The position numbers were made by a program, and so were the translations under genes. From Synechococcus sp. NOUM97013 (GTDB taxonomy: Bacteria; Cyanobacteriota; Cyanobacteriia; PCC-6307; Cyanobiaceae), in assembly GCF_014279815.1 (NCBI RefSeq), contig NZ_CP047941.1, positions 2,294,001 through 2,358,000 of the forward strand: a stretch of 64,000 bases of DNA. The letters are read 5' to 3'. The notes beneath the pieces were generated by a model, which had not been told where the DNA came from, did not search any database, and saw only the letters and a list, made by a program, of their open reading frames with translations. The first letter of the stretch is position 1, and each line of letters starts with the position of its first letter. Shown piece after piece: positions 36,678 through 64,000 of this stretch.

Positions 36678-37367
36678 CTAACCAGGCAACAACCCGCGTT
36701 GGATCAGTGGCTGCAGATCAACGATCCGGAACTGCCCGTTGGTTTCTATCACGGTGCCGCGGTTGCGCAGCTTGCTGAGCGTGCGAGACGCTGTTTCCCG
36801 CGCCAATCCAGCCAGCAAAGCAATTTCCCGTTGGGCCAGCAGTGGGATCTCCGCCTGAGGATTCTGATCGCGAGAACTTTTGCGAGCGAGGTAGGCCAAG
36901 GCATCCAGCAGGCGCGTGGTGGCATCGGCGCTCTGCAGCGCAAAGCGCTGATTGAGATCACGCAAACGCGAAGCCTCCAAGCGCGCCAAGGCAAGAGCGA
37001 ACGACGCCTGCTGACCGAGCAGAGCCACAAACGGCACCGAGTGCAACTTGATCAGGTGCAATGGCGTGAGCGCCACCACATCGGCCGAACGCGACGCACC
37101 ATCGAGAGCGGCCATCTCACCGAACACATCGCCTTGACCCAGCAACGACATGATCACTTCATCACCATCTGCGGTGTAAGTGCGCACCTTGGCCAGCCCC
37201 TCACGGATCAGGAACAGCGACTCACCCCAGTCCTGTTCCATCACGATCACCTGATCGACTTGATGGCTCGTCTCACGATGGCGATCCAGCAGCAGGCTGC
37301 GCTGTTCTTCAGCCAGCTCTGCGAACAGAGGCATGGCCACGAGATCCTCAGGCGTGAGCGCAGACAT
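36678..37367 (-). CDS. Crp/Fnr family transcription regulator
   Basis: The 229-residue protein has an N-terminal cNMP-binding fold (about 10-125) with a phosphate-cassette-like FGEMAALDGASRSADVV, a dimer helix and a C-terminal winged helix (about 165-220) with IALLAGLARETASRTLSKLRNRG as recognition region. The cassette (G-E-M-A, then R-S-A) looks competent for cyclic nucleotides. It may be a cAMP receptor of the cyclases encoded nearby, but other Crp-family types cannot be excluded. It is divergent from the cNMP-binding gene at 37540. Confidence 0.87.
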   Translation of the reverse strand: MSALTPEDLVAMPLFAELAEEQRSLLLDRHRETSHQVDQVIVMEQDWGESLFLIREGLAKVRTYTADGDEVIMSLLGQGDVFGEMAALDGASRSADVVALTPLHLIKLHSVPFVALLGQQASFALALARLEASRLRDLNQRFALQSADATTRLLDALAYLARKSSRDQNPQAEIPLLAQREIALLAGLARETASRTLSKLRNRGTVIETNGQFRIVDLQPLIQRGLLPG

Positions 37368-37539
37368 GATTCAGACCAGAACGACCGGAGTGGCCAAGTC
37401 CAGCTTGCCGACAAAACGCAGAAGTGGGCCGCCGACAACAGAACAAGCGTGATCTCGATCAGAACGTGACGCTCAAACCGGGGAGGGTGCCTGATCGGCC
37501 GAGAGAGGCCAGCATGCGTGCAGCGGTACCCCGCCACGC

Positions 37540-38115
37540 ATGACGAGCGACAACCCAAAGCTCAGCCAAATTCGTGACCGACTGCGGATGTTGGTGAACA
37601 CCCATCTCTCCACCGTCAGCCATGAAACGCTCATGGCTCCAGTGGGTGAGGTGCTGATCGAACAGGACAGTCCGGCCAGACGGGTGCTGCTGGTGCAAAC
37701 AGGGGAATTGACAGTGGAGCGCTGCGAAGCCGGTGGCAGCCCTCAGGTGATCGCCCGAATCGGCCCGAATGAACTCGTCGGAGAAATGGCGCTGATCGGT
37801 GATGAACACCACAGCGCAACCGTCAAAGTCAGCAGAGGACCCGCAGAAATCCTGGTGGTTCAGGCGGATGATCTGCTGCAGGCCGCGATCTATGACAGCG
37901 ACCTAGTGATGGAACTGTTGGCCTTGAGCAGCAACCGCTGCCGTCAAACCAACAGCCATCTGACACTGGTTCTGGAAGCCTTAGAGGCCTTGGACCGAGC
38001 CCATGACGCATCACTGGAACGCTGCTGCAGTGAACTAGAACGCTGCACTGATCCAGGACTCTTCAGCACGGCACAACGGTTGAGACGACTGGGGCAGGCC
38101 CAAAAAACGGCATGA
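37540..38115 (+). CDS. Stand-alone cyclic-nucleotide-binding domain protein
   Basis: The 191-residue protein has a single cNMP-binding domain (about 25-130) with RVLLVQTGELTVE and NELVGEMALIGDEHHSATVKV, where V-G-E-M-A and H-S-A-T stand for the phosphate cassette (the usual Arg is His). The C-terminal helical part (about 130-191) has no DNA-binding motif that I recognise. It could be a cytoplasmic receptor acting through protein contacts. Start ATG 37540 is inside a 172-base divergent region shared with the Crp-like gene. Confidence 0.78.
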   Translation: MTSDNPKLSQIRDRLRMLVNTHLSTVSHETLMAPVGEVLIEQDSPARRVLLVQTGELTVERCEAGGSPQVIARIGPNELVGEMALIGDEHHSATVKVSRGPAEILVVQADDLLQAAIYDSDLVMELLALSSNRCRQTNSHLTLVLEALEALDRAHDASLERCCSELERCTDPGLFSTAQRLRRLGQAQKTA

Positions 38116-38228: not shown

Positions 38229-38891
38229 ATGCAGCTCAAACTCCAGGAACGCCTGCAAAGCCTGAAGATGGTGGCCAGCCTGGCCACGTTTCTCAAAAAC
38301 CCTGGCTCGCTCGACAGCGTGTTTGCTGTCGCCAACAGCGTGAAGGACAGCCCACTGGCTGAGCAGATGCAGCGGCACCTGCTCGGGCACCCCCAGTTCG
38401 GTGCACTGGTGAAGGAAGGTTGGCGACCCAAGGCGATCGACCTGGGCGAACTGCAGAAACTTCCGGAAGGCACCCTCGGACGCTGCTACGCCGATCAGCT
38501 GATCAGCCAGGGCATCACACCGGACGCACTGATCGACCCGTCCCCCATCAGCAATGACGCTGAGTACATCACCCACAGGCTCCGGGAAACACACGACATC
38601 ATCCACGTGCTCACAGGCTTCGGGATCGACGGCGACAGCGAGCTCGGCTTGCAAGGTTTCAACCTTGCTCAGACACGATCCCCCTTGGCCGTAATGCTGA
38701 TTTTTGGCGGCATGTTGGCCGCGCTTCAGGACAACGAGCCACTGGCACCGATGCTGCGAGCCCTAGCACGAGGCTTTCAACTGGGCCTGGATGCTGATCT
38801 GGTGATCGCGTGCAAGCTTGAGGAAGGATGGAAGAGGCCTCTGCAGGACTGGCGCCAAGAGCTGAAACTTGCCGTGAACAGTGACCAGTAA
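38229..38891 (+). CDS. Coq4 family protein
   Basis: The 220-residue protein carries the full Coq4 zinc motif HDxxH-x11-E (H122, D123, H126, E138), preceded by EYITHRLRETHDIIHVLTG, and the segment CYADQLISQGITPD typical of the family. Coq4 acts in ubiquinone synthesis in other organisms. Cyanobacteria make plastoquinone, so the role here is open; a quinone- or lipid-linked step is the natural guess. It lies between two cNMP-binding genes on the same strand. Confidence 0.85.
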   Translation: MQLKLQERLQSLKMVASLATFLKNPGSLDSVFAVANSVKDSPLAEQMQRHLLGHPQFGALVKEGWRPKAIDLGELQKLPEGTLGRCYADQLISQGITPDALIDPSPISNDAEYITHRLRETHDIIHVLTGFGIDGDSELGLQGFNLAQTRSPLAVMLIFGGMLAALQDNEPLAPMLRALARGFQLGLDADLVIACKLEEGWKRPLQDWRQELKLAVNSDQ

Positions 38892-39199: not shown

Positions 39200-39257
39200 T
39201 CACAACACAGCCCGATCCGGACAATGCACTTAAGGTTTGGGAAAACGCGGCGTCTCG

Positions 39258-40151
39258 ATGGACCGGAACGAGCTGATCTCAACGCTCCAGGATGAAGGGA
39301 ACCTGAAGCATTCCTTCAGCGCCGAAGACATCGCCGTCCTGGCGCATCACATGTCGATCAAATCATTCGACGACAATGCGATTTTGATGCACAAAGACGA
39401 GCCCGCTGACTGCATGGCATTTCTGATCAGTGGCAGGGTTCAAATCATTGAAGACGAAAGACAGATTGCAATCCTGACAACTGGGGACTGCTTTGGCGAA
39501 AGCATGTTCTCTGAAGAGGCAACGCGGGTGGCCAGCGTTCAGGCCCTAGAGGCCACAAAAGTCGGCTTGTTCAGCATCGACGACTTCCATGCATTGTTGG
39601 AAACCAATCAGAGACTGGCACTGCAATTCAGAGAAATCTTCAAAGCTGTCGGACGGGCCCGTGCCGAGCAGCATGCCGCCGAAACCTACACAGACAAGCG
39701 CAAATACTTGGCCCTCATTGCCCACAACAACATGAAAGAAAGCCTGATGGAGTTCTGCAGCATGCACACCAACAAGCTGGAACAATTCCCTCTGATTGCG
39801 ACAGGAACGACCGGCAGCATGCTGTTCAAAAAAACAGGCCTATGCCTCAGCCGTAAAGTCGCTTCAGGTCCCTTGGGTGGGGACCAGGCTGTTGGGACTC
39901 TGATTTCCACACAAAACATCATCGGCGTCATCTTCTTCCGAGATCCACTCTCGTCACACCCGCACCACGCCGACATCGAAGCCCTTGGACGACTCTGCGA
40001 CGTCTACCAAGTTCCTTTTGCCACGAACCCTCAAAGCGGAGAGGCGATTCTTGATTATCTTCTCTCTGGAAAGGCTGATCACGACCCCCTTCCCAATCGC
40101 GTGCTAGAGGCCTACGTCAAAGGACAAAAAAAGGTCGTCGAAGCCGGGTGA
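39258..40151 (+). CDS. Fusion of cyclic-nucleotide-binding domain and methylglyoxal synthase
   Basis: The 297-residue protein has a cNMP-binding domain (about 20-128) with FGESMFSEEATRVASV as cassette (E81, R90), and a methylglyoxal synthase domain (about 148-270). The latter keeps H156 and K160 (LIAHNNMK), the phosphate loop ATGTTG, catalytic D209 (SGPLGGDQ), D229, H236 and D239 (FFRDPLSSHPHHAD). The residue after H156, normally Asp, is Asn. Methylglyoxal synthase makes methylglyoxal from dihydroxyacetone phosphate, bypassing lower glycolysis. I infer control by cAMP or cGMP. ATG 39258 is chosen; a TTG seven codons earlier is possible. Confidence 0.88.
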   Translation: MDRNELISTLQDEGNLKHSFSAEDIAVLAHHMSIKSFDDNAILMHKDEPADCMAFLISGRVQIIEDERQIAILTTGDCFGESMFSEEATRVASVQALEATKVGLFSIDDFHALLETNQRLALQFREIFKAVGRARAEQHAAETYTDKRKYLALIAHNNMKESLMEFCSMHTNKLEQFPLIATGTTGSMLFKKTGLCLSRKVASGPLGGDQAVGTLISTQNIIGVIFFRDPLSSHPHHADIEALGRLCDVYQVPFATNPQSGEAILDYLLSGKADHDPLPNRVLEAYVKGQKKVVEAG

Positions 40152-40164
40152 AGGTTGAACATAA

Positions 40165-41928
40165 TCAAGGCTGGGACCGAAGAGCAATCAAGCCAAAAAC
40201 AGTGATCGGCTCTGGCCAACCCTTAACGGAATGATCGCCCAATTCCTCTACAACAACATCGTCATCTAGCAAGTCGCGAACATCCGCACTCATCAAGATC
40301 GGATGTTCGGGAAATTGTCGTGTCAACGATTCCAGTCGACTCGCAAGATTCACCGTGGCCCCGATCACGGTGTACTCCAAACGATCGCTTGAACCAAGGT
40401 TGCCGGCAATCACTTCGCCACAATGAATGCCGATGCCCTGGCGTAACGGAGCTTGACCCTCCATCTCCAGCTCTCGGTTGAGTGCATCCAAGTTGGCCTG
40501 CATGGCCAGGGCGGCGCGCACAGCAGCCAATGCTTCAGCACGTTCTCCACGATGCACAGGAACACCGAACTCGGCCATCAAGGCATCACCAATGAATTTG
40601 TCCAGCAGGCCTTGCTCATGAAGCACAGGTGCAGCAATCGCTTCGAAATAGCGATTCAACAAACGGAAAAGACCCTCTGCATCCATCACATTGCTGCGGG
40701 CCGTGAATCCGACCAAATCGGTAAACAGCACCACACATTGCTCACGCCTTCCGCCCAAGCGCATCCAGCTCTCCTGACCTGAGCGCAACATGTCGCGCAG
40801 GAGGTTTGGAGACACCCTCCTGGACAGAACAGAGTGAAGAAATCGACGCTGAGCACTCTCCTTCTGGAACAGATCACCAGACCGCACGGCGCCAGCCACC
40901 AATGGCATCAGCGTTAAGGCCGCTCCAGGCAACCACAACCCGCAAAGCCAAGCCAAAGTCGTCAGCCCCATCGCAAAACACCCCAGAAGCAGTGCGGAAA
41001 TCGCGGAGCCGGAAGCAGTCGAAGGCGCGGCAAGACGCCAATTGCACAGCAACAACCAGCTGATCACGATCAACGCCAGCGGGAAGGAATCCAAACTTCG
41101 GAAACCACGTCCGCTGCGCAGACCTGAAATCGCTGATAACAGCACCTCAGATCCGCTTTGCTGTCCAAATGGCGTCTCCAACTGATCGCCAAGGGACGGA
41201 GCGGTCGAACCGATGATGACGATCTTGTTTCGCCAAGTGTCTTCAGGGAGCGAACTGACTGCCCAGGCAGGAATCACTGGAATCGATTCACTAGGGCCAA
41301 GAAAATCGATCCCATCGTCTCCCTTTGACGGAGAGACACCCGCTCCTAAGTGAGCCAATGAGGCAGGGTGGGGAGTCGGGAATGGCGCGAGCAACAACTG
41401 CAATTGCTTTGTGCCCGGAACCGACTGAACAACGCCGAAGTCGTCCATCGAGAATGCGGACAGACCACTTGGATACGAAGCATCCCAAGGACGACGCAGT
41501 TCGACCTGCTCGAAATCCTGTGCTTGCTGACGCACCAAGGACGCACTGAGCACAACCTTGTCCTGCCAGGGTTTCAACAGCGATTGGAACGCCATGTCAT
41601 CGGCTGAACCCAAACGACTGGGGCCGGCATGGACAATGTTGAACACAACACGCGCAGCCCCAAGGCGAAGAACCTCACGTGCCAATGCTGCCTGCGTTGC
41701 TCGCGGCCAAGGCCAAGGTCCAAATTCAGTGAGCTGAGGGTCGAGTGACGCCTCATCAATCCCCAGCAAAACAACATCTTCAGCCAGAGGAATTGGCCCA
41801 CGCACCTGAAAAAGAAGCTGCCGACTGGCTGCATCCAGGCGCGTCAACCACGGCAAGAGTGCAAGTGGGGCAAGGAGAGATGCGCGCCATGCAATGGCGA
41901 TCAAACGCTGACGGATCAAGCCTTTCAA
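40165..41928 (-). CDS. CHASE2-domain class III nucleotide cyclase
   Basis: The 587-residue protein has a membrane segment (about 14-30), an extracytoplasmic CHASE2 sensor (about 35-275, with VVLLGIDEASLD and KIVIIGSTAPSLGD), three membrane segments (about 283-350) and a class III cyclase domain (about 395-587). The two metal aspartates D404 (FTDLVGFT) and D448 (KFIGDALMAEFG), K444, N527 and R531 are present. The adenine-contacting Asp is replaced by Ala524 (VIGATVN). The start is TTG in a TTGA overlap with the FecR-domain gene, so the two are coupled. Adenylate cyclase is likely, but substrate choice is uncertain. Confidence 0.88.
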   Translation of the reverse strand: MKGLIRQRLIAIAWRASLLAPLALLPWLTRLDAASRQLLFQVRGPIPLAEDVVLLGIDEASLDPQLTEFGPWPWPRATQAALAREVLRLGAARVVFNIVHAGPSRLGSADDMAFQSLLKPWQDKVVLSASLVRQQAQDFEQVELRRPWDASYPSGLSAFSMDDFGVVQSVPGTKQLQLLLAPFPTPHPASLAHLGAGVSPSKGDDGIDFLGPSESIPVIPAWAVSSLPEDTWRNKIVIIGSTAPSLGDQLETPFGQQSGSEVLLSAISGLRSGRGFRSLDSFPLALIVISWLLLCNWRLAAPSTASGSAISALLLGCFAMGLTTLAWLCGLWLPGAALTLMPLVAGAVRSGDLFQKESAQRRFLHSVLSRRVSPNLLRDMLRSGQESWMRLGGRREQCVVLFTDLVGFTARSNVMDAEGLFRLLNRYFEAIAAPVLHEQGLLDKFIGDALMAEFGVPVHRGERAEALAAVRAALAMQANLDALNRELEMEGQAPLRQGIGIHCGEVIAGNLGSSDRLEYTVIGATVNLASRLESLTRQFPEHPILMSADVRDLLDDDVVVEELGDHSVKGWPEPITVFGLIALRSQP

Positions 41929-42734
41929 GGCGAAGGGGCCATGACGCCCAATTCACGCTCGATCACGGGCAAGGTGTCGAGAGGGGAAGAAAAGCCGTTG
42001 ATCAGACGACTCTTCTGAAGACGGCGCTCGATGTCTGCCTCGGGAATCACGACGGGCGGGGCCCAGATCGCATTACGCGCAGCATCCAGGGAAAGATCCG
42101 TAATGGAACCAACAAACTCGGAATCCAACAACAGTTGCTGACCACTGTTCAACGTAAAACGCTGTCCACTACTGGTCGTGACAGTGACCTTGCCTTCCCA
42201 ACTGAAAATCTTGAATTGGTTATCGGTGTACTGAATGAAAACGGTGGTGCCTTGGATCGAGGCTGTGGCCAGACGTGTCTTGATCGTGAACGGGGCACGA
42301 TTTTGCGTGCCGGGGTTAATCCATCCAATGATGGCTCCCTTGATCAGCTCAACACCGGAATTGCCAAGACGTAGCTGAGCATCACCTCCCATCCTGAATT
42401 GACGCCCGGTCCCAAGCATCACCTGCATTCGCCCAGGCTTCGTCGTTCGCAACAGCGCATCAGTACTGAGCACTTGCCCGGAAATGGCATCAACCTCCGA
42501 CATACCGGGAAGTCGCACAAAAGCAGGTCCATTGGGAACCTCAACAATGCGAGGCTGAATGGCTCTTGACGGTAGACCCGAGAAAACGATGCCAGCAATG
42601 GCGAGGGATAGAGCCTGAACGCGAAACGACAACCCCAACTGAACGTTGCAGCTTTGGAGGATCCTGACAGGAGTCAGACAGAGCGGCAGCGAGGGATACA
42701 AGGAGGTCAACGAACCGAAACGCGTTGCAAACAC
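41925..42734 (-). CDS. Secreted FecR-domain protein
   Basis: The 269-residue frame has a signal-peptide-like segment only after residue 33 (ALSLAIAGIVFSGLPSRA), so the true start may be a TTG near 42638 rather than GTG 42734. The mature protein has a FecR domain (about 100-210) with GRQFRMGGDAQLRLG, IKTRLATASIQGTTVFIQY and FSWEGKVTVTTSSGQ. FecR-like domains are periplasmic signal or scaffold modules. Coupling to the CHASE2 cyclase gene suggests that it feeds the sensor domain. Confidence 0.78.
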   Translation of the reverse strand: MFATRFGSLTSLYPSLPLCLTPVRILQSCNVQLGLSFRVQALSLAIAGIVFSGLPSRAIQPRIVEVPNGPAFVRLPGMSEVDAISGQVLSTDALLRTTKPGRMQVMLGTGRQFRMGGDAQLRLGNSGVELIKGAIIGWINPGTQNRAPFTIKTRLATASIQGTTVFIQYTDNQFKIFSWEGKVTVTTSSGQRFTLNSGQQLLLDSEFVGSITDLSLDAARNAIWAPPVVIPEADIERRLQKSRLINGFSSPLDTLPVIERELGVMAPSP

Positions 42735-42778
42735 AAGCAGGCATCGTCAGATTGGGGCAATGCGTCACCTCGATACAG

Positions 42779-44092
42779 ATGGCATACGAAGAAGTGCTCA
42801 ACAACCCCGCTGGGTTCAATTTCGAGATTGAACAGTTGGGGGAAGCGCAGTTTGCCAATCCAAGCAGCAAAGAGGTCTTCGTGGAGGAAGGAGAAAGAAT
42901 CATCTTCTCAAGCCAACTGAAGAACCTGAAGCGACAACTGGAGACATGCGAAGAGATTCCGACATTTGAAAAAGCAGGAGCCCGTCGAAAGATCTTCCAC
43001 AATCCCGCTCAAACAAAAGCAGCGATCATCACCTGCGGCGGCTTGTGCCCCGGCTTAAACAACGTGATCAAAGGATTAGTGAATGTCCTTGAGCAAGATT
43101 ATGGAGTCGAAGAAATCCATGGCATCAGATATGGATACAAGGGACTGACTGAGGCATCTGAACACGATCCAATTCGATTAAATTCAAAATTTGTCGACCA
43201 GATTCACAAGCAAGGTGGCACTATTCTTGGATCATCAAGGGGGAATCAAGACCCTGAAAAAATGGTTGACACGCTTCAAGCCAAAGGGATCAATTTACTC
43301 TTTTGCATCGGTGGAGACGGCACCTTAAAAGGGGCTCGGGCGATCGCAGAGGCAGCAACACAACGGAAGGCCAATATCAGCGTCGTCGGCGTGCCAAAAA
43401 CAATCGACAATGATCTTGGCTTTGTTGAAAAAACCTTCGGCTTTGAGACCTCTGTTCAGGTCGCATCAGAGATCATCACATCAGCCCACCACGAAGCGGA
43501 GGGAGCGGAGAATGGCATTGGCATCGTGAAATTGATGGGTCGAGATTCAGGATTCATCACAGCAACAGCATCACTGGCCAATTCAGTGGTTGACGTGTGC
43601 TTAATCCCTGAAACACCATTCAAAATCGGCGGGACCGATGGGATCTGCAGAGATTTGGAGCAAAAGCTGGATCGAAACAATCATGCAGTCATCGTCGTCG
43701 CAGAGGGAGCAGGGCAAGAGCTCTTCCAAAACAGCGAGAAGAAACAAGACGCATCCGGAAATATTTTAAAAGACGATATCGGCGAGCTACTAAAAAATGA
43801 AATTACAACTCACTTCAAAAGCAAGGGCATTCCGATCAGCATCAAATACCTCGACCCCAGCTACCACATTAGAAGCGTTGCGGCGAACGCTTCAGATGCC
43901 GTGTTATGCCATCTTCTCGCAGAATATGCTGTTCATGCCGGAATGAGTGGAAAAACCAACCTGGTCATTGGATACTGGAACAACTTCTTTACACATGTGC
44001 CTATCAAGCTCGCCACAAAAGAACGAAGAATGGTCGACCTGGACGGCGCCTTATGGAGAGGGGTCATCAGCGCGACACGACAAGACGAGTGA
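42779..44092 (+). CDS. 6-phosphofructokinase
   Basis: The 437-residue enzyme has the PFK motifs TCGGLCPGLNNVIKG, GTILGSSRGNQ, CIGGDGTLKGA (178-182 GGDGT, the ATP rather than pyrophosphate form), VPKTIDNDLGF with catalytic D210, and GRDSGFITATASL. A ~75-residue N-terminal extension resembles that of the longer, plant-like group. It phosphorylates fructose 6-phosphate. Start ATG 42779 is preferred; 42725 would reach into the divergent FecR-gene region. Codon usage is more AT-rich than in the housekeeping genes. Confidence 0.93.
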   Translation: MAYEEVLNNPAGFNFEIEQLGEAQFANPSSKEVFVEEGERIIFSSQLKNLKRQLETCEEIPTFEKAGARRKIFHNPAQTKAAIITCGGLCPGLNNVIKGLVNVLEQDYGVEEIHGIRYGYKGLTEASEHDPIRLNSKFVDQIHKQGGTILGSSRGNQDPEKMVDTLQAKGINLLFCIGGDGTLKGARAIAEAATQRKANISVVGVPKTIDNDLGFVEKTFGFETSVQVASEIITSAHHEAEGAENGIGIVKLMGRDSGFITATASLANSVVDVCLIPETPFKIGGTDGICRDLEQKLDRNNHAVIVVAEGAGQELFQNSEKKQDASGNILKDDIGELLKNEITTHFKSKGIPISIKYLDPSYHIRSVAANASDAVLCHLLAEYAVHAGMSGKTNLVIGYWNNFFTHVPIKLATKERRMVDLDGALWRGVISATRQDE

Positions 44093-46066: not shown

Positions 46067-46076
46067 TAGTCTGCTA

Positions 46077-54286: not shown

Positions 54287-54664
54287 TTACAACCACTTTG
54301 TCAGAACCAACACCCAAACCACCTTGCAAACCACATGCATCAGCTGATCAGCAGCTAACGAGTAACGAAAACGACATTTACCGTAGTCAATGGCAGCATG
54401 AAAGATCATTTCGGCAAGTCCGACGAATGGAACTCCAGTGAGAAGGGACACCACCAAACCATGCGTTGCCGAGTGAGCAGCCAACCACCAACGCCAATCC
54501 AAAACAGCATCCTTTCCCGGACACTTTTCAACCGCCATCCGGTCACTTTGAAGCGGAAAATCAGCCAAAAAATGGCCAAAAACAAGCAGAATCAGCAGTT
54601 CAAAGGGCTGCTCCGCAAGCAAGGCCACGTCAAGCATCTGCGGGAATCCACAACCTGCTTTCAT
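54287..54664 (-). CDS. DUF3307 membrane protein
   Basis: The 125-residue protein has three or four membrane segments and the DUF3307 pattern: LVFGHFLADFPLQSD near the N-terminus, AHSATHGLVVSL, and FHAAIDYGKCRF. Conserved His/Asp in membrane segments suggest metal or proton binding, but the function is unknown. An ATG at 54637 is an alternative start. The gene probably belongs to one minus-strand operon with DUF928 copy 2 and the MscS-cNMP channel. Confidence 0.75.
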   Translation of the reverse strand: MKAGCGFPQMLDVALLAEQPFELLILLVFGHFLADFPLQSDRMAVEKCPGKDAVLDWRWWLAAHSATHGLVVSLLTGVPFVGLAEMIFHAAIDYGKCRFRYSLAADQLMHVVCKVVWVLVLTKWL

Positions 54665-54878: not shown

Positions 54879-55526
54879 TCAAAAGCACTGCACCGTGACG
54901 GTTTCTGGCCAGGAGTCGTCGATCACCTCATCGCCAAAGTCGAACACCTGCTTGAGAGGTGCTACAGCGGTGGAGCTGCCACAGACAGCCTGCAACGAAG
55001 CCAACTGCTGCTGGAGCAACCCAACCTGCGAATCAGCTTCAGGCAGAAGCAACGTAAGGGCTGGGGGAGCGGATGCCGTGACGAAGCCGAATTCATCCGC
55101 TCCATCGTCCTCGTCACATTGGTAGGACGATTCCCAGAGCAAAGGGCTGGAGGCTGCCGGCACGCGAAGCAGCACCAGCCGATTCACCGAAGCGCCCAAC
55201 GATTGCTGCAGCAAAGGGCTGACATCTTGCGCGGCAAACCCGTCATCTGATGCGGGCCGCAAGATGACCTCCAAGGGCATCGGATTGGCCGCTGGCCCTT
55301 CCAGCAAAGCAATCAAATTGGCATTCCCCAAAGAGAACACATTGGAGGAAGGCACCAGATGCACCATCGGCCGGGCAGCACACTCACCCCGTGTGCCGCC
55401 GCCAATGCGACGGCCAGGGAAGGTACTGCGCGGAGCCGCCTCCCCAGACGAAGCACAGATCATGGGAACCACCAATGCACTCATCAAAAGCGCGGCTACG
55501 GCATTGACAGACTGAAAGCGAGACAT
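54879..55526 (-). CDS. Secreted DUF928 family protein, copy 2
   Basis: The 215-residue protein has a signal peptide (about 6-30) and then APRSTFPGRRIGGGTRGECA, nearly identical to copy 1, followed by MVHLVPSSNVF, LWESSYQCDEDDG and ALTLLLPEAD. Four cysteines are at matching positions in both copies. It is the first gene of the probable DUF928-DUF3307-MscS-DUF928 operon, and a perfect Crp-type box lies about 100 bases upstream of its start. Confidence 0.85.
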   Translation of the reverse strand: MSRFQSVNAVAALLMSALVVPMICASSGEAAPRSTFPGRRIGGGTRGECAARPMVHLVPSSNVFSLGNANLIALLEGPAANPMPLEVILRPASDDGFAAQDVSPLLQQSLGASVNRLVLLRVPAASSPLLWESSYQCDEDDGADEFGFVTASAPPALTLLLPEADSQVGLLQQQLASLQAVCGSSTAVAPLKQVFDFGDEVIDDSWPETVTVQCF

Positions 55527-55616: not shown

Positions 55617-55632
55617 TGTGATGTGAATCACA
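55617..55632. promoter_or_regulatory. Perfect Crp-type operator upstream of DUF928 copy 2
   Basis: TGTGATGTGAATCACA fits TGTGA-N6-TCACA at all ten defined bases on both strands. Its centre is about 98 bases upstream of the DUF928 copy 2 start and just after the TpsA2 stop. This suggests cAMP-receptor control of the downstream operon. Confidence 0.68.
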
Positions 55633-55650: not shown

Positions 55651-58600
55651 CTACCAGGCTGAACCAATGAGCTCAATACCAGACCAGAAATAAGGGTGCT
55701 GAACACCACCTGCGATGCGGCGACGCTGGGCGGGGGTCAGCTCGGTGAGCAAAGGAACTTCACCAGCACCGACAACCACATCGCCCTGCAATTGAATCGC
55801 ACCAGAAGCAAAGAGTTGGCGCGTGCGTTGGAGCGCTTCAGCTTTCGGCAAACCCTGATCGAGCAAGCGATAGAACTGCACAAAGAAAGCAGACGTCACC
55901 ACATCATCGACGTACCAAAGTGTGCCCACGGCACTGCGGGCTCCGGCCTGAAGCGCAAGACCAGCAAAACCAAGCTCACTGTCCGGATCACCAAGGAGCG
56001 TGCGGCAGGCACTGAACACAATGAGATCAAGCGGCGTGTCACGTCGCTCACTGCGCAACTTGGCCAATTGCGCCATCGACATCGGCCCAGTGCCCGTGTG
56101 GAGCACCGATTGCGCGGGTCCTCCAGGCCGGAAATCGGCATGGGTCGCCACATGTACCCGGTCGTAACGCTGATCAGCGGCGCCATTCAACAAAGCCTGT
56201 GGTGAGAAGTCGTCATTGAGATATCGATCAGCACCAGCGGAAGCTTCGAGTTGCTCCAGTTCCTGAGGCACAAGCGGCAACGGCGCAAGGGTCTCAAATT
56301 CAGATGCCCCCAGTGCCAGCTGCCGCCCAGAAGACGACTGAGATGGTGCCAATGGAGTGAGTGCGAGTGAAGGCGTCAGTCCGAAGGCGTACTTCTCACC
56401 GAAGAAGCTTGTCCCGTCACTGAGTGCAGCGAAAGGAACAGCTTGCAAGCCCTGATCGGCTGCGATCAGCAAAGTCTCAATCTCTTGGCCTTGAAGCGAC
56501 TCCCAAATGGGAGCAACCAACAGGGCATGCAACTGACGCGATGGCGAAGCTGGGTCATCAACGGCCAGAGGCTCCTGCCGTGACAACTGACGGTAAAGAG
56601 CCTTCAACAAACTGGAAAATCGTCCACGGTTGAGCGACACGCGTCGAGCCTCCACGGGGGCATCCGATCCGATCAAGGTCAGATCAAGGAAGGCATCTTC
56701 GTCTTGGCCATTGGATGCCGACGTCTGCTGCGTAAACCGAACTTGGAGCACTGCAGGATTGGGAGCCAAACCGTCGCGTTTAACGCGACTCAAGATGTTT
56801 TGAACGTCCTCAACGCTACGGAGCGACGTACGCAATGCATCCTGAGGAAGTCCAAGTAATGATGCTGTGCGACTTGTCGCCGATTCATCCGATTTTTGAA
56901 ACTCTGCGACGGCTTGCTCAGGAGACACAGTTTGAGGACTACCTGACGCTGCAGGCGGTGGTGCCGTGGTGCCTGCAACAGAGGCGGCGGAATCACCGCC
57001 ACTACCAACATCAACTTGCAAAACAGGGCCAACAGCCTGCGACTGCGTCGTTATGGAACCACCTGAAGCACTGGAAGAAGAGTCAGACCCTGCCGCTGAA
57101 GATGATTCATTAGAAGTCAAAACGGAAACTTCAGCGATTACAACCAACTCTTCCAATTGGTCATCATCGAAGGGAACCTCAGCGACATCTTGCTGTTCCT
57201 CTAAGTCCGACGTCTCGTCAATTTCGACTTCATCAATTTCATCGATTGGTACATCCGTTGGCGGGTCTGTAGGCGCATCTGTGGTTTCTGTTGATGTATC
57301 TATTGATGTATCAGTTGGGGAACTCGTGACCGCATCAGACCCTGATCCACCGGATACGGAAGAAGGAGAAGCGGAAGAAGAAAGATCGACGAGCGACCCG
57401 TCACTGACAAATGTTGACCCCGTATAGCTGATGGATGCCGTAGCAGGAAATGTAAGCGTTCCGCCGCCAGCCTTAGTGAATGAACCACTACCAGTCACAG
57501 GGGCATCCCAAACCAGATCAAAACCACTGCCGACACTGATTCCGCCACCCCCAGAACCTAATTTCAAACTCGTATTCGTGACAGTCTCACTGCTATCGCG
57601 GCGCAGAAATGATGCATTGTCCAAAAAGATAGACGAGATATCTGGCAACACTTCCGAACCAGAAGGTTGATCCATCCAGACCGTGCCACCCCCAGTAGAT
57701 TCAACTTTGGTGACATTTAAGGACCCCTTGAACCGAGCTGTTCCAGAGCCGATGTGCAGAATGTCACCAGGAGCCGAGGAAGATTGAAGACCACCCGAAC
57801 CGAAGCTTGACTGAACAGAGCTCACAACAATTTGACTATCACCAAGATTCAACGCATCCTGCAGCGTGATATCACCTGCCCCCGCCAGAGTCAAAGAAGC
57901 TGAGACACCAGAATCGGAAGACACTGTATCGCTGAGCGTGAGACTGTCTTGCTTCACTTCAATCGTTGAACTCGATCGGAGCAAAACAGGCAGAGTAATT
58001 GAGTTATCACCCGAAAGACTGAGCAACTTACCCCCATCAAGCTCGACATTTTCACCAAGACTGATCCCGCCAGCCACCTCAAAAATGGCACCAGATTGAG
58101 CCTTAGTATAAGAGCCAGTACCCAGCGCGTTAGTTGCTGTTGCGCGCAATGTACCGGCTTGGATCGTGGTGTTGCCTGACCAAGAAGAGCTATCCCCAGA
58201 AACAATCAAACGACCAGCTCCGGATTTATTCAAATTTCCAGAGCCGGTGAGCGTGGCGGCCATCAGTGGAGGAGAGGAATCGCCAGAAGTACCGATCGTG
58301 GTATTCCCAGTCGAAATATTGAGCGGCCCATTCAGCGCTAAAGTGATGCCCGAAGAAGACGCTACATAGCCTTGTTCGGCATCCAAAGAGAGCCCGCCCG
58401 ACCCCGTAGTGATGCTGGAATTCAGTTCGATATCTCCAGTTGCATCTAGAACAAGATTTGCAGAAGAGCTTGAGTAATCAATCGAAGCTCCAGATTCCCA
58501 TGTGATATTTCCGGACTCTGATGAATCGTCAGAAGGTCCTGTCTGAATAATCACATTGCCACTTATCAAAGCAGATCCTATTTCAGCAGCACTCACAAAT

Positions 58601-59745
58601 GATCCAGAGCTACTTGACTGGAATAGCTGTCCAGAGACAGAACTATCTGGAGTGATGTTTGTTTGCCCTGAACCGATTGTGATGTCGAAAGGATCCAACA
58701 ACCAATCGCCAGACAATCCATTCGCAGCCGTGACATCTAAGCGTTCCGGCTCAGCTACCAGCACAGGCCCCGACGTTTCAATCTGGCCGCCGTTGCCAGC
58801 CACATCACCACCGCGTGCCAAAAGCGTGCCCTGCGCCACGGTGCCACCGGATGGATTGTTGAGATCACTCCAAATCACCACCGTTCCACCATTACCGGAG
58901 CCCGTGGATGAGGCATCCACAACAGATCCCGGCTTCATCCAGGTCTGGCTGGCCTGACGCACCGTCGGATCACTGTTCTGCCAGCTGCCACCAACCTGCA
59001 CCAAACCGCCCTCAACGGTGCCCGTCGCCAACAGTTGCGATCCCTCTCCAACGCTCACTAAATCCCCTGTCAGCGTGAGCGAACCACCGTCACCTGCGGC
59101 ATTGCTCACGGAAAGGCGGCTGTTCAGCACATCGATATGGCCACCCGGCGCATCCACCAACAGCGATTCGTCGATATCAAGCGACACCCCCTCCATGCGG
59201 ATCAACGGACGCCGACCAGCCAAATCACCCGAAAGCAGGCCCAGGGCACCAGGCAATGGGTCGCCACCCAACCCAGGAATCGCCGTTAAGGGTGAGTTGA
59301 AAACATCAAAGACTCCACCTGCAAAACGCAGCTGGGAGGCAGTACTCAACGTGAGTTGGGGAATCTGCTGAAACGATGCGCCGGGCATCAATTGAATACC
59401 GCCCGGAGAAAGCAAAAACAGATGGGCCGGCGATGAAAGTGAAACGCTTTTATCAATGAAGCTTCCATCGGCTGCGGTGACACCCAACACGAGGTTGCGG
59501 ATGCCATCGCTATCGATCGACACACCCTGGATGGCCCCTCGGGTGTCGAATTCACTCAGGCGGTGAAAGCGATTGCGACCACTATCGCTGCCACCACTAA
59601 TCCGACACAAACCACTCTGGCAGCGACCATCAAGAACACCGTTAATTCGTGTTCCCAGAGAATCAGAAGCACGACTGGCAACATCCGCACGTGCAGAGAC
59701 GCCGGTGATTAGGAGCAACAGTGGAATGAATGCCAGTCGTTTCAT
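55651..59745 (-). CDS. TPS exoprotein (TpsA) with C-terminal CHAT protease domain, pair 2
   Basis: The 1364-residue protein has a signal peptide (1-20), a TPS domain (about 25-190, SLSSPAHLFLLSPGGIQ), a haemagglutinin-like beta-helix and autotransporter-type repeats (SGAGRLIVSGDSSSWSGNTT and AGGGTLTFPATASISYTGST). A Thr/Asp/Glu-rich linker follows (about 800-880), then a CHAT domain (about 1090-1364) with H1202 (VATHADF) and C1247 (VFSACRT). It is clearly paralogous to the exoprotein at 46-50 kb in the CHAT part but has a different repeat region. AGGAG lies upstream of the ATG. It is divergent from TpsB2. Confidence 0.9.
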   Translation of the reverse strand: MKRLAFIPLLLLITGVSARADVASRASDSLGTRINGVLDGRCQSGLCRISGGSDSGRNRFHRLSEFDTRGAIQGVSIDSDGIRNLVLGVTAADGSFIDKSVSLSSPAHLFLLSPGGIQLMPGASFQQIPQLTLSTASQLRFAGGVFDVFNSPLTAIPGLGGDPLPGALGLLSGDLAGRRPLIRMEGVSLDIDESLLVDAPGGHIDVLNSRLSVSNAAGDGGSLTLTGDLVSVGEGSQLLATGTVEGGLVQVGGSWQNSDPTVRQASQTWMKPGSVVDASSTGSGNGGTVVIWSDLNNPSGGTVAQGTLLARGGDVAGNGGQIETSGPVLVAEPERLDVTAANGLSGDWLLDPFDITIGSGQTNITPDSSVSGQLFQSSSSGSFVSAAEIGSALISGNVIIQTGPSDDSSESGNITWESGASIDYSSSSANLVLDATGDIELNSSITTGSGGLSLDAEQGYVASSSGITLALNGPLNISTGNTTIGTSGDSSPPLMAATLTGSGNLNKSGAGRLIVSGDSSSWSGNTTIQAGTLRATATNALGTGSYTKAQSGAIFEVAGGISLGENVELDGGKLLSLSGDNSITLPVLLRSSSTIEVKQDSLTLSDTVSSDSGVSASLTLAGAGDITLQDALNLGDSQIVVSSVQSSFGSGGLQSSSAPGDILHIGSGTARFKGSLNVTKVESTGGGTVWMDQPSGSEVLPDISSIFLDNASFLRRDSSETVTNTSLKLGSGGGGISVGSGFDLVWDAPVTGSGSFTKAGGGTLTFPATASISYTGSTFVSDGSLVDLSSSASPSSVSGGSGSDAVTSSPTDTSIDTSTETTDAPTDPPTDVPIDEIDEVEIDETSDLEEQQDVAEVPFDDDQLEELVVIAEVSVLTSNESSSAAGSDSSSSASGGSITTQSQAVGPVLQVDVGSGGDSAASVAGTTAPPPAASGSPQTVSPEQAVAEFQKSDESATSRTASLLGLPQDALRTSLRSVEDVQNILSRVKRDGLAPNPAVLQVRFTQQTSASNGQDEDAFLDLTLIGSDAPVEARRVSLNRGRFSSLLKALYRQLSRQEPLAVDDPASPSRQLHALLVAPIWESLQGQEIETLLIAADQGLQAVPFAALSDGTSFFGEKYAFGLTPSLALTPLAPSQSSSGRQLALGASEFETLAPLPLVPQELEQLEASAGADRYLNDDFSPQALLNGAADQRYDRVHVATHADFRPGGPAQSVLHTGTGPMSMAQLAKLRSERRDTPLDLIVFSACRTLLGDPDSELGFAGLALQAGARSAVGTLWYVDDVVTSAFFVQFYRLLDQGLPKAEALQRTRQLFASGAIQLQGDVVVGAGEVPLLTELTPAQRRRIAGGVQHPYFWSGIELIGSAW

Positions 59746-59854
59746 GCCACGTCTCCTAAGCCCTTAAGAGCAACACTGTTTTGAGCGTCCTGAAACGCTA
59801 GGACAATTCTCTCAGGGAATCTTAAAGTTCTGCTCAGTTTCAAGCGCTGCCTCC

Positions 59855-61558
59855 ATGCTTCTCCTGTTGGCGCAGCTGGCTTCACCACCGATTCAGCCGG
59901 GTCCAGCTCGCTTACCAGCAGAGCGCGCACCCAATCAGCAACCACGGTTGCCATCGCAAACAGACAGCGAGACAACACCCTCCATCACGCTTCCCTCCGA
60001 TGAACCCTTAACGCCAGCGGCTGAAGACTCAAGCCCCGCCGGTCACGACACGCCAGGGTCCAGTCGCACCGTCAACATCGTCGGGGATCTTCCTTACTCA
60101 AACGGCGATCTTTCAGAGCTGCTCGAACGCTGCAGCAAAGCCAACGACCAAGCCAGCCGACTGCAGCAGTGCGCCGAAGCACTCACAGGCCTTCTGCAAA
60201 AAGATGGCTACGTGAACTCCAGGGTGTACGTCGAGGCTGAACCAGCCCCTGGTCAACTCAACGTGGTCATGGGACAGCTCGTTGAGCTGCGGATCGAAAG
60301 CGAAAACGCCGGACTTGAGCAACGGGTGCGCCAGCGGCTCAGCCCGTTGCTGAACCGCACCTTGAATTTGCCCGACCTCCAACAACAACTGCTGCTCCTG
60401 AAACAGCGTTCTGTGGTGGGCACGGTGGCAGGCAGCCTTGGGAAACTGGGAAGTGACCCCACCCAAGCGGTGCTCAACCTGGTAGTGACGCCTGCCAAAC
60501 AGCCCTGGCGCGGGGACTTGAGCATGAGCAACGACGGCAACGCTGGAAGCGGGGAATGGCGCAGCGTGGCGGTGCTGCAAAAGCCCACACTGCTCACCAA
60601 TGGCGACGTTTTTCAGTTCTACGGAGAACTCAGTGCCGATGGCACTCCGGAATTAGGCACAACATTGGGCTCTCTCAGTTACACCTATCCAATAAGCGAA
60701 TCCTGGACGCTCACTGGTTCCTTTGGTGCCAGTCGCCGGAAGCTAGTGGAAGCCAAAGGAGCCGCCAATGATCTGAGCTTTCGTCAATTTCAGGGCTTGG
60801 CCCAGCTGCAATGGACGTTTGCAGAGTCCAGCAATCAAACCTGGTATGCCTCAGCGGGACTCAGCATCAACCGCAATAACAGCTATCTCGACGGAGACTC
60901 TGTTCCTCTGATCATTGGCGGCGGTCCCGACGGCGACCTCACCACGGGATATTTACGTCTGGGATTAGGCCATGGCGGCAATCACGGCAACTTGGGATGG
61001 AACGCGCAAATTTACGGCCTACAGGGAATCGCAGGATTGAGCTCTCAAACCCAACTGGAGGATTTCTCCTTTTTCGGCATTCACCCCGGAGAGTCACGCG
61101 CACTTGGAGGAGTCGCATCATTGGGATGGACTATGCAGCCAAATCTGCAACTCAATCTGCGCGCTTCCGGCCAAGTGGCCTTCAACGAACTCACAAGTGA
61201 CATGGGATTTGGCCTAGGGAGCGATGTTGGGCTTCGAGGCTTACCAGGAACATTGATCAGTGGAGACAATGGCTGGCTCAGCACAGGGGAACTGAACTGG
61301 ACGTTCTGGCAAAACAGCAAGAACGCCCTGCAGTTGGTTCCTTTCATGGGGATTGGAGGCATCCAAACCACTCGCGACTCAGTGACCATGGACGACACAA
61401 TCGGCACGGGGGGATTACTACTGCGCTGGCTGCGGGGCCAACACTGGTCTGTGGAAGTGGGCTGGGTCGATCAGTTCAATGCCAACGACAACGTCGGGAT
61501 CTGGAACGACTGGTTGATCGGCAGCGGTGCCTACGGCAAGGTGCGCTATCGATTCTGA
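59855..61558 (+). CDS. Two-partner secretion transporter TpsB, pair 2
   Basis: The 567-residue transporter matches the one at 44.4 kb over its length: the N-terminus MLLLLAQLASPPIQPGPAR, a Pro/Ser linker (about 25-75), POTRA domains (about 75-215, LQKDGYVNSRVYVEAE), and the barrel with WRGDLSMSNDGNAGSGEWRS, GSLSYTYPISESWTLTGSF, GLRGLPGTLISGDNGWLS and a final Phe. It is head-to-head with its presumed substrate gene (109-base gap), whereas pair 1 is tail-to-tail. Confidence 0.9.
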   Translation: MLLLLAQLASPPIQPGPARLPAERAPNQQPRLPSQTDSETTPSITLPSDEPLTPAAEDSSPAGHDTPGSSRTVNIVGDLPYSNGDLSELLERCSKANDQASRLQQCAEALTGLLQKDGYVNSRVYVEAEPAPGQLNVVMGQLVELRIESENAGLEQRVRQRLSPLLNRTLNLPDLQQQLLLLKQRSVVGTVAGSLGKLGSDPTQAVLNLVVTPAKQPWRGDLSMSNDGNAGSGEWRSVAVLQKPTLLTNGDVFQFYGELSADGTPELGTTLGSLSYTYPISESWTLTGSFGASRRKLVEAKGAANDLSFRQFQGLAQLQWTFAESSNQTWYASAGLSINRNNSYLDGDSVPLIIGGGPDGDLTTGYLRLGLGHGGNHGNLGWNAQIYGLQGIAGLSSQTQLEDFSFFGIHPGESRALGGVASLGWTMQPNLQLNLRASGQVAFNELTSDMGFGLGSDVGLRGLPGTLISGDNGWLSTGELNWTFWQNSKNALQLVPFMGIGGIQTTRDSVTMDDTIGTGGLLLRWLRGQHWSVEVGWVDQFNANDNVGIWNDWLIGSGAYGKVRYRF

Positions 61559-61827
61559 GGCAAGCGCTAACGCACACCAACGAGCCGGGCTTCTGAAGAA
61601 ACTGAAGATCGACAACTTGCAAACGACTCTGTTCCTCGGTCACCGTGTGCCACCGGAGCGCAATTGGCTCCAAAATCATGCAATGCAAGCAACGGGATCA
61701 AAGTTCAAGGAGCACAAAAATTGCCCGAACTTGTTCGCACCAAACAAGCAAGATTTAAAGCAATTGGAATGCTGAACAAGAAGGTCTTCAAACGGAGCTA
61801 CACGTCATTTTGCCAGCTTCGATAAAA

Positions 61828-64000
61828 TCAAATAGGTGTGGCACCTGATCGCTTCAATCGCTTGGCAAGTTGACGCAGCAAGCCATGGGTGAAATGGCTC
61901 GAGCGTTGCAACAATTCATCAAAGGCGTGAGCCGGGAAAACAAAGACACCGAGGCCATCGGGACTGGCCTGAAGCAAGCCCATGGATGGCTCTCCGGAGA
62001 TCACATCCATCGCACCGATGACAGAACCAGCATCATGATGCAAGAGCTGACCACCCTCGGTTGTTTCGGTTGCACCACCACGAAGAACGACCAGGATTAA
62101 GTTTTTCTGATTGACAGCATCTCCAGCTGACCACGATTTCAACCAGCCATGTTCAGCAACCCATAGCAATCCAGATGGCAATAAGTCACGAAACAAGCTC
62201 GAATTTGCCAAGTGTGGAAATTCATCATGATCACGATGCGGTTGCCCTTTGAGCTGACTCTCCAAAAACATCGATGTCCCTAGTCCTGGCCGGCCAGACT
62301 GCAATCGCGACGCAACAACCCCAGGCCTGATCAATCGCTCCACCATCAAGACCCAACCGGCTGTATCTGGATCAGGATCCATCCATAACGTCTCGAGCGC
62401 CTCATCCAAAGAAGCGCTCTGTTCTGGGATTTGCTGATACTCCTTTTCCAAAACATCAGGCGGAAGAGCTTGGGCAATTTCGTTCAAACGCTGCTCCATT
62501 GCCAACGCCAATGGATGCAGCAAAACCTGGTCAGAGGCTTGCTCTTGCAATGCCAACAAGTAGGCACGCTCTTGCTTGAACTGTTGCAGACGTGTCTGGA
62601 TCCTCAGCTGCGCCAAATCACCAGAACTGTGGAAACGTCTCAGCACACGCTCAGCCTCAACATCCTCCAAACCTGAATCCAACTTCAAACGCTCCAATCG
62701 AGGCTGCAACTGCACAGGCAAAGAATCAACATCGAGAGTTTGCAAGCCGGAGATTTCCAGAAAATCCTCAACGATTTCGGCAAAAGCCTCCTCACGCAAT
62801 TGCTGAAGCTGCAAAGTTCGCTCATCAAGCTGCAACAAAGTTGGTTCATCGGCCGCTAAAACACGGATGGTCGCGTGGTGATCTTCTTCAGAAAGCTGCA
62901 AACTCTGACGCAACTCTTCTAATTCCACTAGGGCTTTGGCGCGATCAAGAGAGCCATTACGAATCAAATCACGAATAACTCCTTGGTAAATCTCACGGGC
63001 ACGTCCACGAACAGCAACAGGAAGAGCCTTGGCCAAAGTAAACACCTCTTGCGCCGACAAGTCCTGCAATCTCCTTCCATCCAATGCAGCATCAAGGCCT
63101 GGCAGCTGCTTCAATTGTCTCCTCAAACTGTCGGTTGTACTCTCACGGCGATAAGTCGACTGATCACGTGCCCAAGATCGGAATAAAACAATCGCAGAGA
63201 AAACTAAAACCAATGAGCGTATCCATTGAGCCCCATGGGGACCAAAAGCACCCTGACTTGGGTCAACAAACCAGAAAAAAATGTTGACTGATAAAAAAGT
63301 AGCCAGCAAACGAGTCCTGCTGACCGCTAAGTCTGCCGCTGAGGGTAGACCTAGCTTTTCATATTGACGCAAAAGAATGCGTTCAATCCCTTGGAATACA
63401 GCAACAGAAGCCCAGCCAGTCAAGACCAACAGCAGCGGGATCACAACAACCCTTGGGAATGGAAGCCAGCCGCGTAGAGGATCCCAAGCACGCGCAGGCA
63501 GTGTTGCATCAAAAGCCCAGTGACCCTGACGTAAATATGTCAATTCTGAATCTTGAGGGGCCATATGAGCCTCAACGGCCATCATCAACTCAAAGAACAT
63601 CAGGACCAAGCCTGGATAGGAATACCAGGCCCAAGTCAATCCACGCTTACCGCGAAGAGACTTCCAATAATGGCGTTCAGAATCAATATCAATGCAAGAG
63701 GCTTGGCACGCCACACATGCACTTTGTTCCTTACCTGAATCAGCAATTGAGCGACACATTGACTGGGTGATCTTGCTGGTACTCCCGATATGAGCGGCTC
63801 CTCCAAGAGCACTACGCTGACCAGTCAAAATGGTCTGAACAGGACCCATCGGACAGATGTATTGACACCATGCCTTCCCGGCATAAAGCCAACCAACGAA
63901 TGCAGCTGCTAACAAAGTAAAAATCAGTAGCGACGCTAGACCTATTGGACTGGAATTAACGACCAAGAGACGCAGACAAAGTCCAGCAATTAGAAGCGAC
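61828..64000 (-). CDS. NosR/NapH-like iron-sulfur membrane protein with C-terminal cNMP-like domain, 5' end cut
   Basis: The frame is open through the right edge, so at least 723 residues are present and the N-terminus is missing. Membrane segments flank the 4Fe-4S motifs WCQYICPMGP and CVACQASC; more membrane segments follow (about to residue 290 of the visible part). A long Gln/Leu/Glu helical region (about 300-560) leads to a C-terminal domain (about 600-712) resembling a cNMP-binding fold, with GSVIGAMDVISGEPS in the cassette position. The usual Glu and Arg are not clear, so ligand binding is doubtful. It may link membrane redox state to signalling. Confidence 0.75.
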   Translation of the reverse strand, partial: SLLIAGLCLRLLVVNSSPIGLASLLIFTLLAAAFVGWLYAGKAWCQYICPMGPVQTILTGQRSALGGAAHIGSTSKITQSMCRSIADSGKEQSACVACQASCIDIDSERHYWKSLRGKRGLTWAWYSYPGLVLMFFELMMAVEAHMAPQDSELTYLRQGHWAFDATLPARAWDPLRGWLPFPRVVVIPLLLVLTGWASVAVFQGIERILLRQYEKLGLPSAADLAVSRTRLLATFLSVNIFFWFVDPSQGAFGPHGAQWIRSLVLVFSAIVLFRSWARDQSTYRRESTTDSLRRQLKQLPGLDAALDGRRLQDLSAQEVFTLAKALPVAVRGRAREIYQGVIRDLIRNGSLDRAKALVELEELRQSLQLSEEDHHATIRVLAADEPTLLQLDERTLQLQQLREEAFAEIVEDFLEISGLQTLDVDSLPVQLQPRLERLKLDSGLEDVEAERVLRRFHSSGDLAQLRIQTRLQQFKQERAYLLALQEQASDQVLLHPLALAMEQRLNEIAQALPPDVLEKEYQQIPEQSASLDEALETLWMDPDPDTAGWVLMVERLIRPGVVASRLQSGRPGLGTSMFLESQLKGQPHRDHDEFPHLANSSLFRDLLPSGLLWVAEHGWLKSWSAGDAVNQKNLILVVLRGGATETTEGGQLLHHDAGSVIGAMDVISGEPSMGLLQASPDGLGVFVFPAHAFDELLQRSSHFTHGLLRQLAKRLKRSGATPI

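What the first reader, a model, noticed from the sequence alone, without database searches (positions are those of the whole stretch)
36678..64000. Dense cluster of cyclic-nucleotide makers and receptors
Seen: two CHASE2 cyclases, a Crp-like regulator, a lone cNMP domain, a cNMP-methylglyoxal synthase, an MscS-cNMP channel and an iron-sulfur membrane protein with a cNMP-like tail, within about 27 kb. Inference: an outside signal sensed by CHASE2/FecR is passed to transcription, carbon flux, a channel and possibly redox. Co-location of so many receptor types is unusual.
Basis: partly seen in the sequence, partly recalled or inferred. Interest (0 to 1): 0.75.

Follow-up and report, generated by a model that had tools for sequence, protein, structure and literature searches.

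The report
Cyanobacterial cyclic-nucleotide signalling island
A small marine-type cyanobacterium keeps both of its cyclic-nucleotide-making enzymes beside a gene switch, an ion channel and a sugar-metabolism enzyme that carry matching receptor domains; related cyanobacteria keep versions of the same gene island, so this looks like a real but already noticed signalling island with some new parts.

Summary
Both class III cyclases of this 2.55 Mb genome and 4 of its 10 detectable cNMP domains lie in about 16 kb. The FeS protein's tail is a degenerate fifth. The clustering is not chance: among 64 relatives with the MscS-cNMP channel, 53 have a cyclase within 10 kb (about 1.5 expected).

The island as such is in print: Doré 2020 names it Syn_GI122 in one sentence. 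What I add:
- Two cyclase classes, each with its own secreted partner: T-type with FecR (36 of 39), A-type with an undescribed secreted protein, "H" (23 of 25).
- A Crp box upstream of H in 5 of 17 H genes from Crp-bearing genomes, 0 of 10 from others.
- Interchangeable enzyme fusions: cNMP-methylglyoxal synthase, paired with phosphofructokinase even in a Gemmatimonadetes MAG, and glutaminase-STAS-cNMP (17 of 64 loci).
- The lone cNMP gene is the remnant of a cNMP-cyclase-FecR-like operon intact in relatives.

Best reading: a modular, reshuffled, outside-in cAMP-type signalling island. Signal, messenger identity and receptor binding are inferred, not shown.

The parts
36678..37367 (-). Crp-like regulator (cNMP domain + HTH_Crp_2), intact phosphate cassette FGE..RSA
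   Evidence: Pfam; motif; found in 37 of 201 relatives
37540..38115 (+). lone cNMP-domain protein; Arg of cassette replaced by His; remnant of a cNMP-cyclase-FecR-like operon that lost its cyclase here
   Evidence: Pfam; motif; operon in G141, G123, G101; relatives' sequences
38229..38891 (+). Coq4-like protein, neighbour of the lone cNMP operon (role in the island unknown)
   Evidence: Pfam; same position in G141 and G123
39237..40151 (+). cNMP-methylglyoxal synthase fusion (cMGS)
   Evidence: Pfam; NCBIfam; conserved SGPLGGDQ; 11 of 201 relatives
40165..41928 (-). CHASE2-cyclase A, T class, key residues D,K,D,T,N,R
   Evidence: Pfam; residues
41925..42734 (-). FecR protein, partner of T-class cyclases
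   Evidence: Pfam; 36 of 39 T-class cyclases have FecR within 300 bp
42725..44092 (+). phosphofructokinase (PRK06830 type), partner of cMGS
   Evidence: NCBIfam; only in 4 of 201 relatives (one a remnant), always beside cMGS
44411..46066 (+). ShlB-type two-partner secretion translocator
   Evidence: Pfam
46077..49694 (-). large CHAT-domain protein 1
   Evidence: Pfam
49970..51952 (+). CHASE2-cyclase B, A class, key residues D,K,D,A,N,R
   Evidence: Pfam; residues
52039..52740 (-). H protein copy 1 (undescribed secreted-type, PRSTFPGRRxGGGTRGEC), tail to tail with cyclase B
   Evidence: adjacent to 23 of 25 A-class cyclases
52763..54259 (-). MscS channel with C-terminal cNMP domain, intact cassette FGE..RKA
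   Evidence: Pfam; motif
54287..54664 (-). DUF3307 small protein, recurrent neighbour of the channel
   Evidence: Pfam; 46 of 64 loci
54879..55526 (-). H protein copy 2
   Evidence: model pLDDT 84
55617..55632 (.). Crp box TGTGATGTGAATCACA, about 90 bp upstream of H copy 2
   Evidence: one of 5 exact sites in the genome; same place in G169 and G156
55651..59745 (-). large CHAT-domain protein 2
   Evidence: Pfam
59855..61558 (+). second ShlB-type translocator
   Evidence: Pfam
61828..64000 (-). Fer4_5 membrane protein with degenerate cNMP tail; runs on past the window end
   Evidence: Pfam; full gene; homologue with detectable cNMP domain

Best explanation
A modular cyclic-nucleotide signalling island. 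Step 1 (inferred from domains): a signal outside the inner membrane acts on the CHASE2 sensor of either cyclase, tuned by a co-encoded secreted partner (FecR for the T class, H for the A class). Step 2 (residues shown, product inferred): the cytoplasmic class III domain makes a cyclic nucleotide, most likely cAMP for cyclase A; cyclase B has Ala where the base-selecting Thr/Asp sits, so its product is less certain. Step 3 (domains shown, binding inferred): the messenger binds cNMP domains that act locally and fast on a channel (MscS-cNMP, ion or osmolyte release) and on metabolism (cMGS, which together with phosphofructokinase would divert hexose phosphate to methylglyoxal; glutaminase-cNMP plays the enzyme role in other lineages), and slowly on transcription (Crp, with a Crp box upstream of H that could close a feedback loop). 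The island is reshuffled as cassettes: sensor-cyclase pairs, receptor-enzyme fusions, and CHAT/two-partner-secretion pairs are gained and lost separately around one location.
For: Only two cyclases in the genome, both here; 4 of 10 cNMP domains here. MscS-cNMP loci with a cyclase within 10 kb: 53 of 64, 27 within 1 kb, about 1.5 expected. By hand tally of the genus labels these 53 cover 15 of 17 genera. All 70 full-length cyclase domains in these loci keep both metal Asp, Lys, Asn and Arg. 61 of 64 central MscS-cNMP genes match the motif GE..RxA. The T/FecR against A/H partition holds also inside genomes carrying both classes (e.g. G090, G113, G132). Crp box at H: 5 of 17 H genes in Crp+ genomes, 0 of 10 in Crp-; 29 permuted half-sites reach at most 1. 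cMGS-PFK pair also in a Gemmatimonadetes MAG, L041. Glutaminase-STAS-cNMP in 17 of 64 loci. Synechococcus AG-673-A03 (L040) has H-CHAT-ShlB-Crp-Coq4-cNMP-cNMP-cMGS-cyclase-FecR-PFK.
Against: No binding or activity was measured. cMGS lies near a cyclase in only 6 of 11 genomes (hand count); G075 has cMGS and no PF00211 cyclase. In G141, G075, G162 and G186 the cassette Arg of cMGS is replaced. FeS tail and lone cNMP have degenerate cassettes. Crp boxes are not enriched in the window as a whole (27 seen, 30.8 expected at up to 2 mismatches), and 11 of 17 H genes in Crp+ genomes have no site at up to 2 mismatches. G193 and G103 have Crp but no cyclase. 11 of 64 channel loci show no cyclase with the strict profile, several on short contigs; the 4 loci of genus g19 have none.
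Confidence: 0.62

Rival explanations
1. Hypervariable landing site only: genes of secretion, signalling and metabolism accumulate at one integration hotspot and share no pathway.
For: Doré 2020 recovers it as a gained-gene island. Composition differs between close relatives; G141 has lost cyclase A, FecR and most of PFK while keeping an 88-residue PFK remnant. cMGS, FeS and Crp occur elsewhere in other genomes.
Against: Channel-cyclase linkage in 53 of 64 loci, 9 with a gap of at most 50 bp; fixed pairing of each cyclase class with one partner; Crp box upstream of H; cMGS-PFK pair across phyla.
Confidence: 0.2
2. Two insulated pathways lie side by side: T-class cyclase-FecR with cMGS/PFK (carbon), and A-class cyclase-H with MscS-DUF3307-CHAT (envelope), possibly with different nucleotides. 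This is a version of the best explanation, not wholly exclusive of it.
For: Clean T/FecR and A/H partition and A-class closeness to MscS (20 of 25 within 1.5 kb, against 10 of 39 for T, same counts by hand from the corrected distances); Thr to Ala at the base-selecting position; cMGS-cyclase-FecR-PFK block moves as a unit.
Against: In G076, G102, G142, G170 and G194 a T-class cyclase lies within 1 kb of the MscS-cNMP; in G004 and G061 MscS-cNMP follows PFK in the T block; one cytoplasm would mix a shared messenger.
Confidence: 0.25
3. Anti-phage or self-killing system of Pycsar type: infection triggers a cyclase and a membrane effector (MscS-cNMP) depolarises the cell, with the CHAT proteins as proteases.
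For: Cyclase next to a membrane protein with a cNMP domain; hypervariable island; CHAT domains; weak PADLOC matches to PycC (1e-28) and PycTIR.
Against: The PADLOC matches cover only the generic cyclase and cNMP domains. Cyclases carry CHASE2 sensor regions and secreted partners, unlike soluble Pycsar cyclases (recalled); receptors include metabolic enzymes and a transcription factor.
Confidence: 0.08

Closest known systems
Syn_GI122 genomic-island module of marine picocyanobacteria (Doré et al. 2020, PMC7522525; passages seen)
   Same: CHAT proteins, adenylate cyclases near CRP or a cAMP-regulated MscS channel, in strains of almost all lineages
   Different: Methylglyoxal, phosphofructokinase and FecR have 0 occurrences in its main text. 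Cyclase classes, H and Crp boxes are not in the passages I read, and the supplementary gene table was not readable here.
bCNG channels (Caldwell 2010, Malcolm 2012; seen only as reference titles)
   Same: MscS core with a C-terminal cNMP domain
   Different: Here tied to CHASE2 cyclases and DUF3307; gating untested
Class III adenylyl cyclases of bacteria (e.g. PDB 2w01, 3r5g, 1wc0)
   Same: Catalytic domain and metal, Lys, Asn, Arg residues
   Different: CHASE2 sensors; A class lacks the usual Thr/Asp at the base-selecting site
Methylglyoxal synthase MgsA
   Same: Catalytic part scores above the NCBIfam cut-off of PRK05234
   Different: N-terminal cNMP domain; no paper holds both terms in the library searched
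Pycsar defence
   Same: Cyclase plus cNMP-domain effector
   Different: No TIR effector found; cyclases have CHASE2 sensor regions

Membership tests
Syn_GI122 island module | CHAT proteins plus adenylate cyclases near CRP or cNMP-MscS | tested here: met
   definition from the passage
Syn_GI122 island module | gene families listed in its supplementary table | not testable with these tools
bCNG channel | MscS beta and C-terminal domains plus cNMP domain in one chain | tested here: met
   protein 3
bCNG channel | opens on cyclic nucleotide | not testable with these tools
   needs electrophysiology
class III adenylyl cyclase | two metal Asp, base-selecting Lys, transition-state Asn and Arg (residue roles recalled) | tested here: met
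   cyclases A and B and 70 of 70 full-length domains
class III adenylyl cyclase | Asp or Thr at second base-selecting position (recalled) | tested here: inconclusive
   cyclase A has Thr; cyclase B has Ala; in loci 39 T, 25 A, 2 G, 2 S, 2 D
CRP/FNR regulators | cNMP domain plus Crp-type HTH | tested here: met
   protein 1
CRP/FNR regulators | binds TGTGA-N6-TCACA (consensus recalled) | tested here: inconclusive
   sites upstream of H in Crp+ genomes only, no binding shown
Pycsar | cNMP-domain TIR effector next to the cyclase | tested here: not met
   no TIR in the scanned island proteins; PADLOC matches only to the cNMP part
Pycsar | makes cCMP or cUMP | not testable with these tools
   -
DUF928 (considered for H because of a recalled motif) | match to PF06051 | tested here: not met
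   no match in the window's genome at E up to 10; none of 26 H members match

The most novel reading that the evidence does not exclude
The island is a plug-in signalling platform: any enzyme or channel becomes controlled by an outside signal when fused to a cNMP domain and parked beside a CHASE2 cyclase. The two cyclase classes, each with its own secreted partner, make different cyclic nucleotides, so that two insulated messenger channels run in one picocyanobacterial cell, one of them steering carbon into methylglyoxal.
Probability: 0.15. Interest if true: 0.78.

Novelty: new variant of a known kind. Interest (0 to 1): 0.5.

Why it matters
Picocyanobacteria are abundant and are often described as poor in signalling systems (general knowledge). 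A recurrent island that links a secreted sensor partner, a cyclase, a channel and cNMP-fused metabolic enzymes gives a small, testable cAMP circuit. The cNMP-methylglyoxal synthase plus phosphofructokinase pair would be direct second-messenger control of an enzyme rather than of transcription, which is uncommon in bacteria (general knowledge). The H protein gives a handle on what CHASE2, a widespread sensor domain, actually senses.

Tried and rejected
Pycsar membership: rejected as far as tested. DUF928 for protein H: not met. A window-wide Crp regulon: not supported; genes beside the other four exact sites gave no common theme (a metallopeptidase-like and an MFS gene near one, an ABC transporter gene around another, a methyltransferase near a third, unknowns). 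H fold: AlphaFold pLDDT 84; Foldseek gave no PDB match at E up to 0.001; VIA-align gave Z up to 7.1 with many unrelated Ig/FnIII-like sandwiches, within the range that call itself warns is common, so no relative is claimed. My first neighbour table labelled 615-650 aa cNMP proteins and 850-940 aa cNMP proteins as MscS-cNMP; they are glutaminase-STAS-cNMP and Fer4-cNMP proteins. Distances were redone from the true channel gene. One search counted 56 of 64 loci with a looser cyclase profile, one search counts 53 with a strict one; the three dropped are G037, G047 and G059, and G037 holds a different cyclase type (HAMP/Cache) beside its channel. A first residue check was misaligned for the cyclases and for part of the channels and was replaced. 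Literature searches without a hit in the library; one search had 10 papers at 3 of 4 terms, none of the 8 listed on this subject.

Rows left out: alignment A1 used 9 of 11 cMGS genomes (G112, split in two pieces, and G002 were left out). Alignment A2 used 26 H proteins. One search used 27 of 30 H genes of the 64 loci (the script dropped those without the anchor motif or with too little upstream DNA). One channel hit per genome was taken for the 64 loci.
Full report
What is there. The window is G000:C1:2294001-2358000 of a complete 2.55 Mb genome whose nearest named hit for the cMGS protein is Synechococcus sp. AG-673-A03. The FeS tail was recognised only by way of a homologue, 55% identical in G044, where Pfam detects the cNMP domain. 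The genome has two PF00211 cyclases, both here, and ten PF00027 domains, four of them here.

Is it more than chance. In 201 genomes of the family, MscS-cNMP occurs in 64 and a cyclase in 86; 62 of the 64 have a cyclase against 24 of the other 137 (Fisher 3e-29, not corrected for kinship). Around the channel gene, 53 of 64 loci have a cyclase within 10 kb, 45 within 5 kb, 27 within 1 kb and 9 within 50 bp; about 1.5 loci are expected. By hand tally from the genus column, the 53 cover 15 of 17 genera. Eleven loci have none with the strict profile; several of these lie on short contigs. Crp (37 of 201) co-occurs with a cyclase in 35 of 37 genomes and, by hand tally of listed coordinates (the cyclase list was cut), lies within about 10 kb of one in at least 19.

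Cyclase classes. All 70 full-length catalytic domains in the 64 loci keep both metal Asp, Lys, Asn and Arg. The second base-selecting site is T in 39, A in 25, G in 2, S in 2 and D in 2. T-class: FecR within 300 bp in 36 of 39, H in 0. A-class: H in 23 of 25, FecR in 0. H has no significant Pfam match, starts with a signal-like stretch followed by PRSTFPGRRxGGGTRGEC, has four invariant cysteines (positions 49, 137, 182, 214), occurs in 51 of 200 genomes of the order, and usually lies tail to tail with the cyclase. Its model is mostly beta.

Receptors. 61 of 64 channel genes match the cassette motif GE..RxA; an earlier count that took the best MscS-like ORF per locus gave 62 of 64. In the window, Crp, channel and cMGS have it; the lone cNMP has His for Arg, and the FeS tail has lost Glu and Arg. 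cMGS from four distant MAG loci, L041 to L044 (labelled Gemmatimonadetes, Verrucomicrobiia, Opitutia and Trichodesmium), keep Glu and Arg, whereas G141, G075, G162 and G186 have lost the Arg.

Metabolic arm. The PFK occurs in 4 of 201 genomes, one of them an 88-residue remnant, always beside cMGS. G000, G004 and G061 share the block cMGS-cyclase-FecR-PFK; G062 has cMGS-cyclase-FecR. In L041 cMGS and a 68% identical PFK are neighbours without a cyclase of this type in the 19 kb held. So the enzyme pair is wider than the cyclase link. In 17 of 64 channel loci a glutaminase-STAS-cNMP protein is present (six of the seventeen proteins were scanned by Pfam or recognised from the scanned ones by profile); no paper on this was among those listed.

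Remnant operon. In G141 and G123 the lone cNMP gene is followed by a third type of CHASE2 cyclase, a FecR-like 600 to 660 aa protein and Coq4; G101 has the first three in a row, with Coq4 further off. The FecR-like label rests on my own profile at about 1e-9; Pfam gave no match for the G101 protein. In the window the cyclase and FecR-like genes are absent and Coq4 follows directly.

Regulation. The window has one exact Crp box, 55617-55632, one of five exact sites in the genome. Upstream of H genes, sites with at most one mismatch occur in 5 of 17 in Crp-bearing genomes and 0 of 10 in others; permuted half-sites reach at most 1. Three of the five are in the window's genus and two in another genus, so these may be as few as two independent cases. 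The window as a whole shows no excess.

Prior knowledge. Doré et al. 2020 (PMC7522525; I saw the passages, not the whole text) describe the island as Syn_GI122. That settles that co-location as such is known. Methylglyoxal, phosphofructokinase and FecR do not occur in its main text.

Mechanism. Shown: gene content, linkage, catalytic residues, cassette residues, Crp boxes. Inferred: outside sensing by CHASE2 with FecR or H, the product cAMP, binding, gating, and enzyme control. Osmotic or envelope stress is a guess from the channel and the CHAT/two-partner-secretion genes.

Noticed in passing
window 44411-49694 and 55651-61558: Two CHAT protein/ShlB translocator pairs, apparently two-partner secretion of CHAT-domain proteins; CHAT in 20 and ShlB in 22 of 64 channel loci.
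   Followed up: partly
L164:4662-6521 and 16 other loci: Glutaminase-STAS-cNMP fusion near CHASE2 cyclases in 17 of 64 channel loci.
   Followed up: partly
L041:9989-12715: Gemmatimonadetes MAG with cNMP-MGS and PFK as neighbours.
   Followed up: partly
L167:7115-10803: A second cyclase-channel pair: Cache/HAMP cyclase directly next to another MscS-cNMP, whose cassette lacks the Arg.
   Followed up: no
window 52039-52740 and 54879-55526: Two H copies about 40% identical in one island; G054 has three in tandem.
   Followed up: partly
G112:C1:1202783-1203663: cMGS split into a cNMP piece and an MGS piece, possible frameshift.
   Followed up: no
L018 / G170:C1:190706-191119: An MGS-like match with an in-frame TGA.
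   Followed up: no
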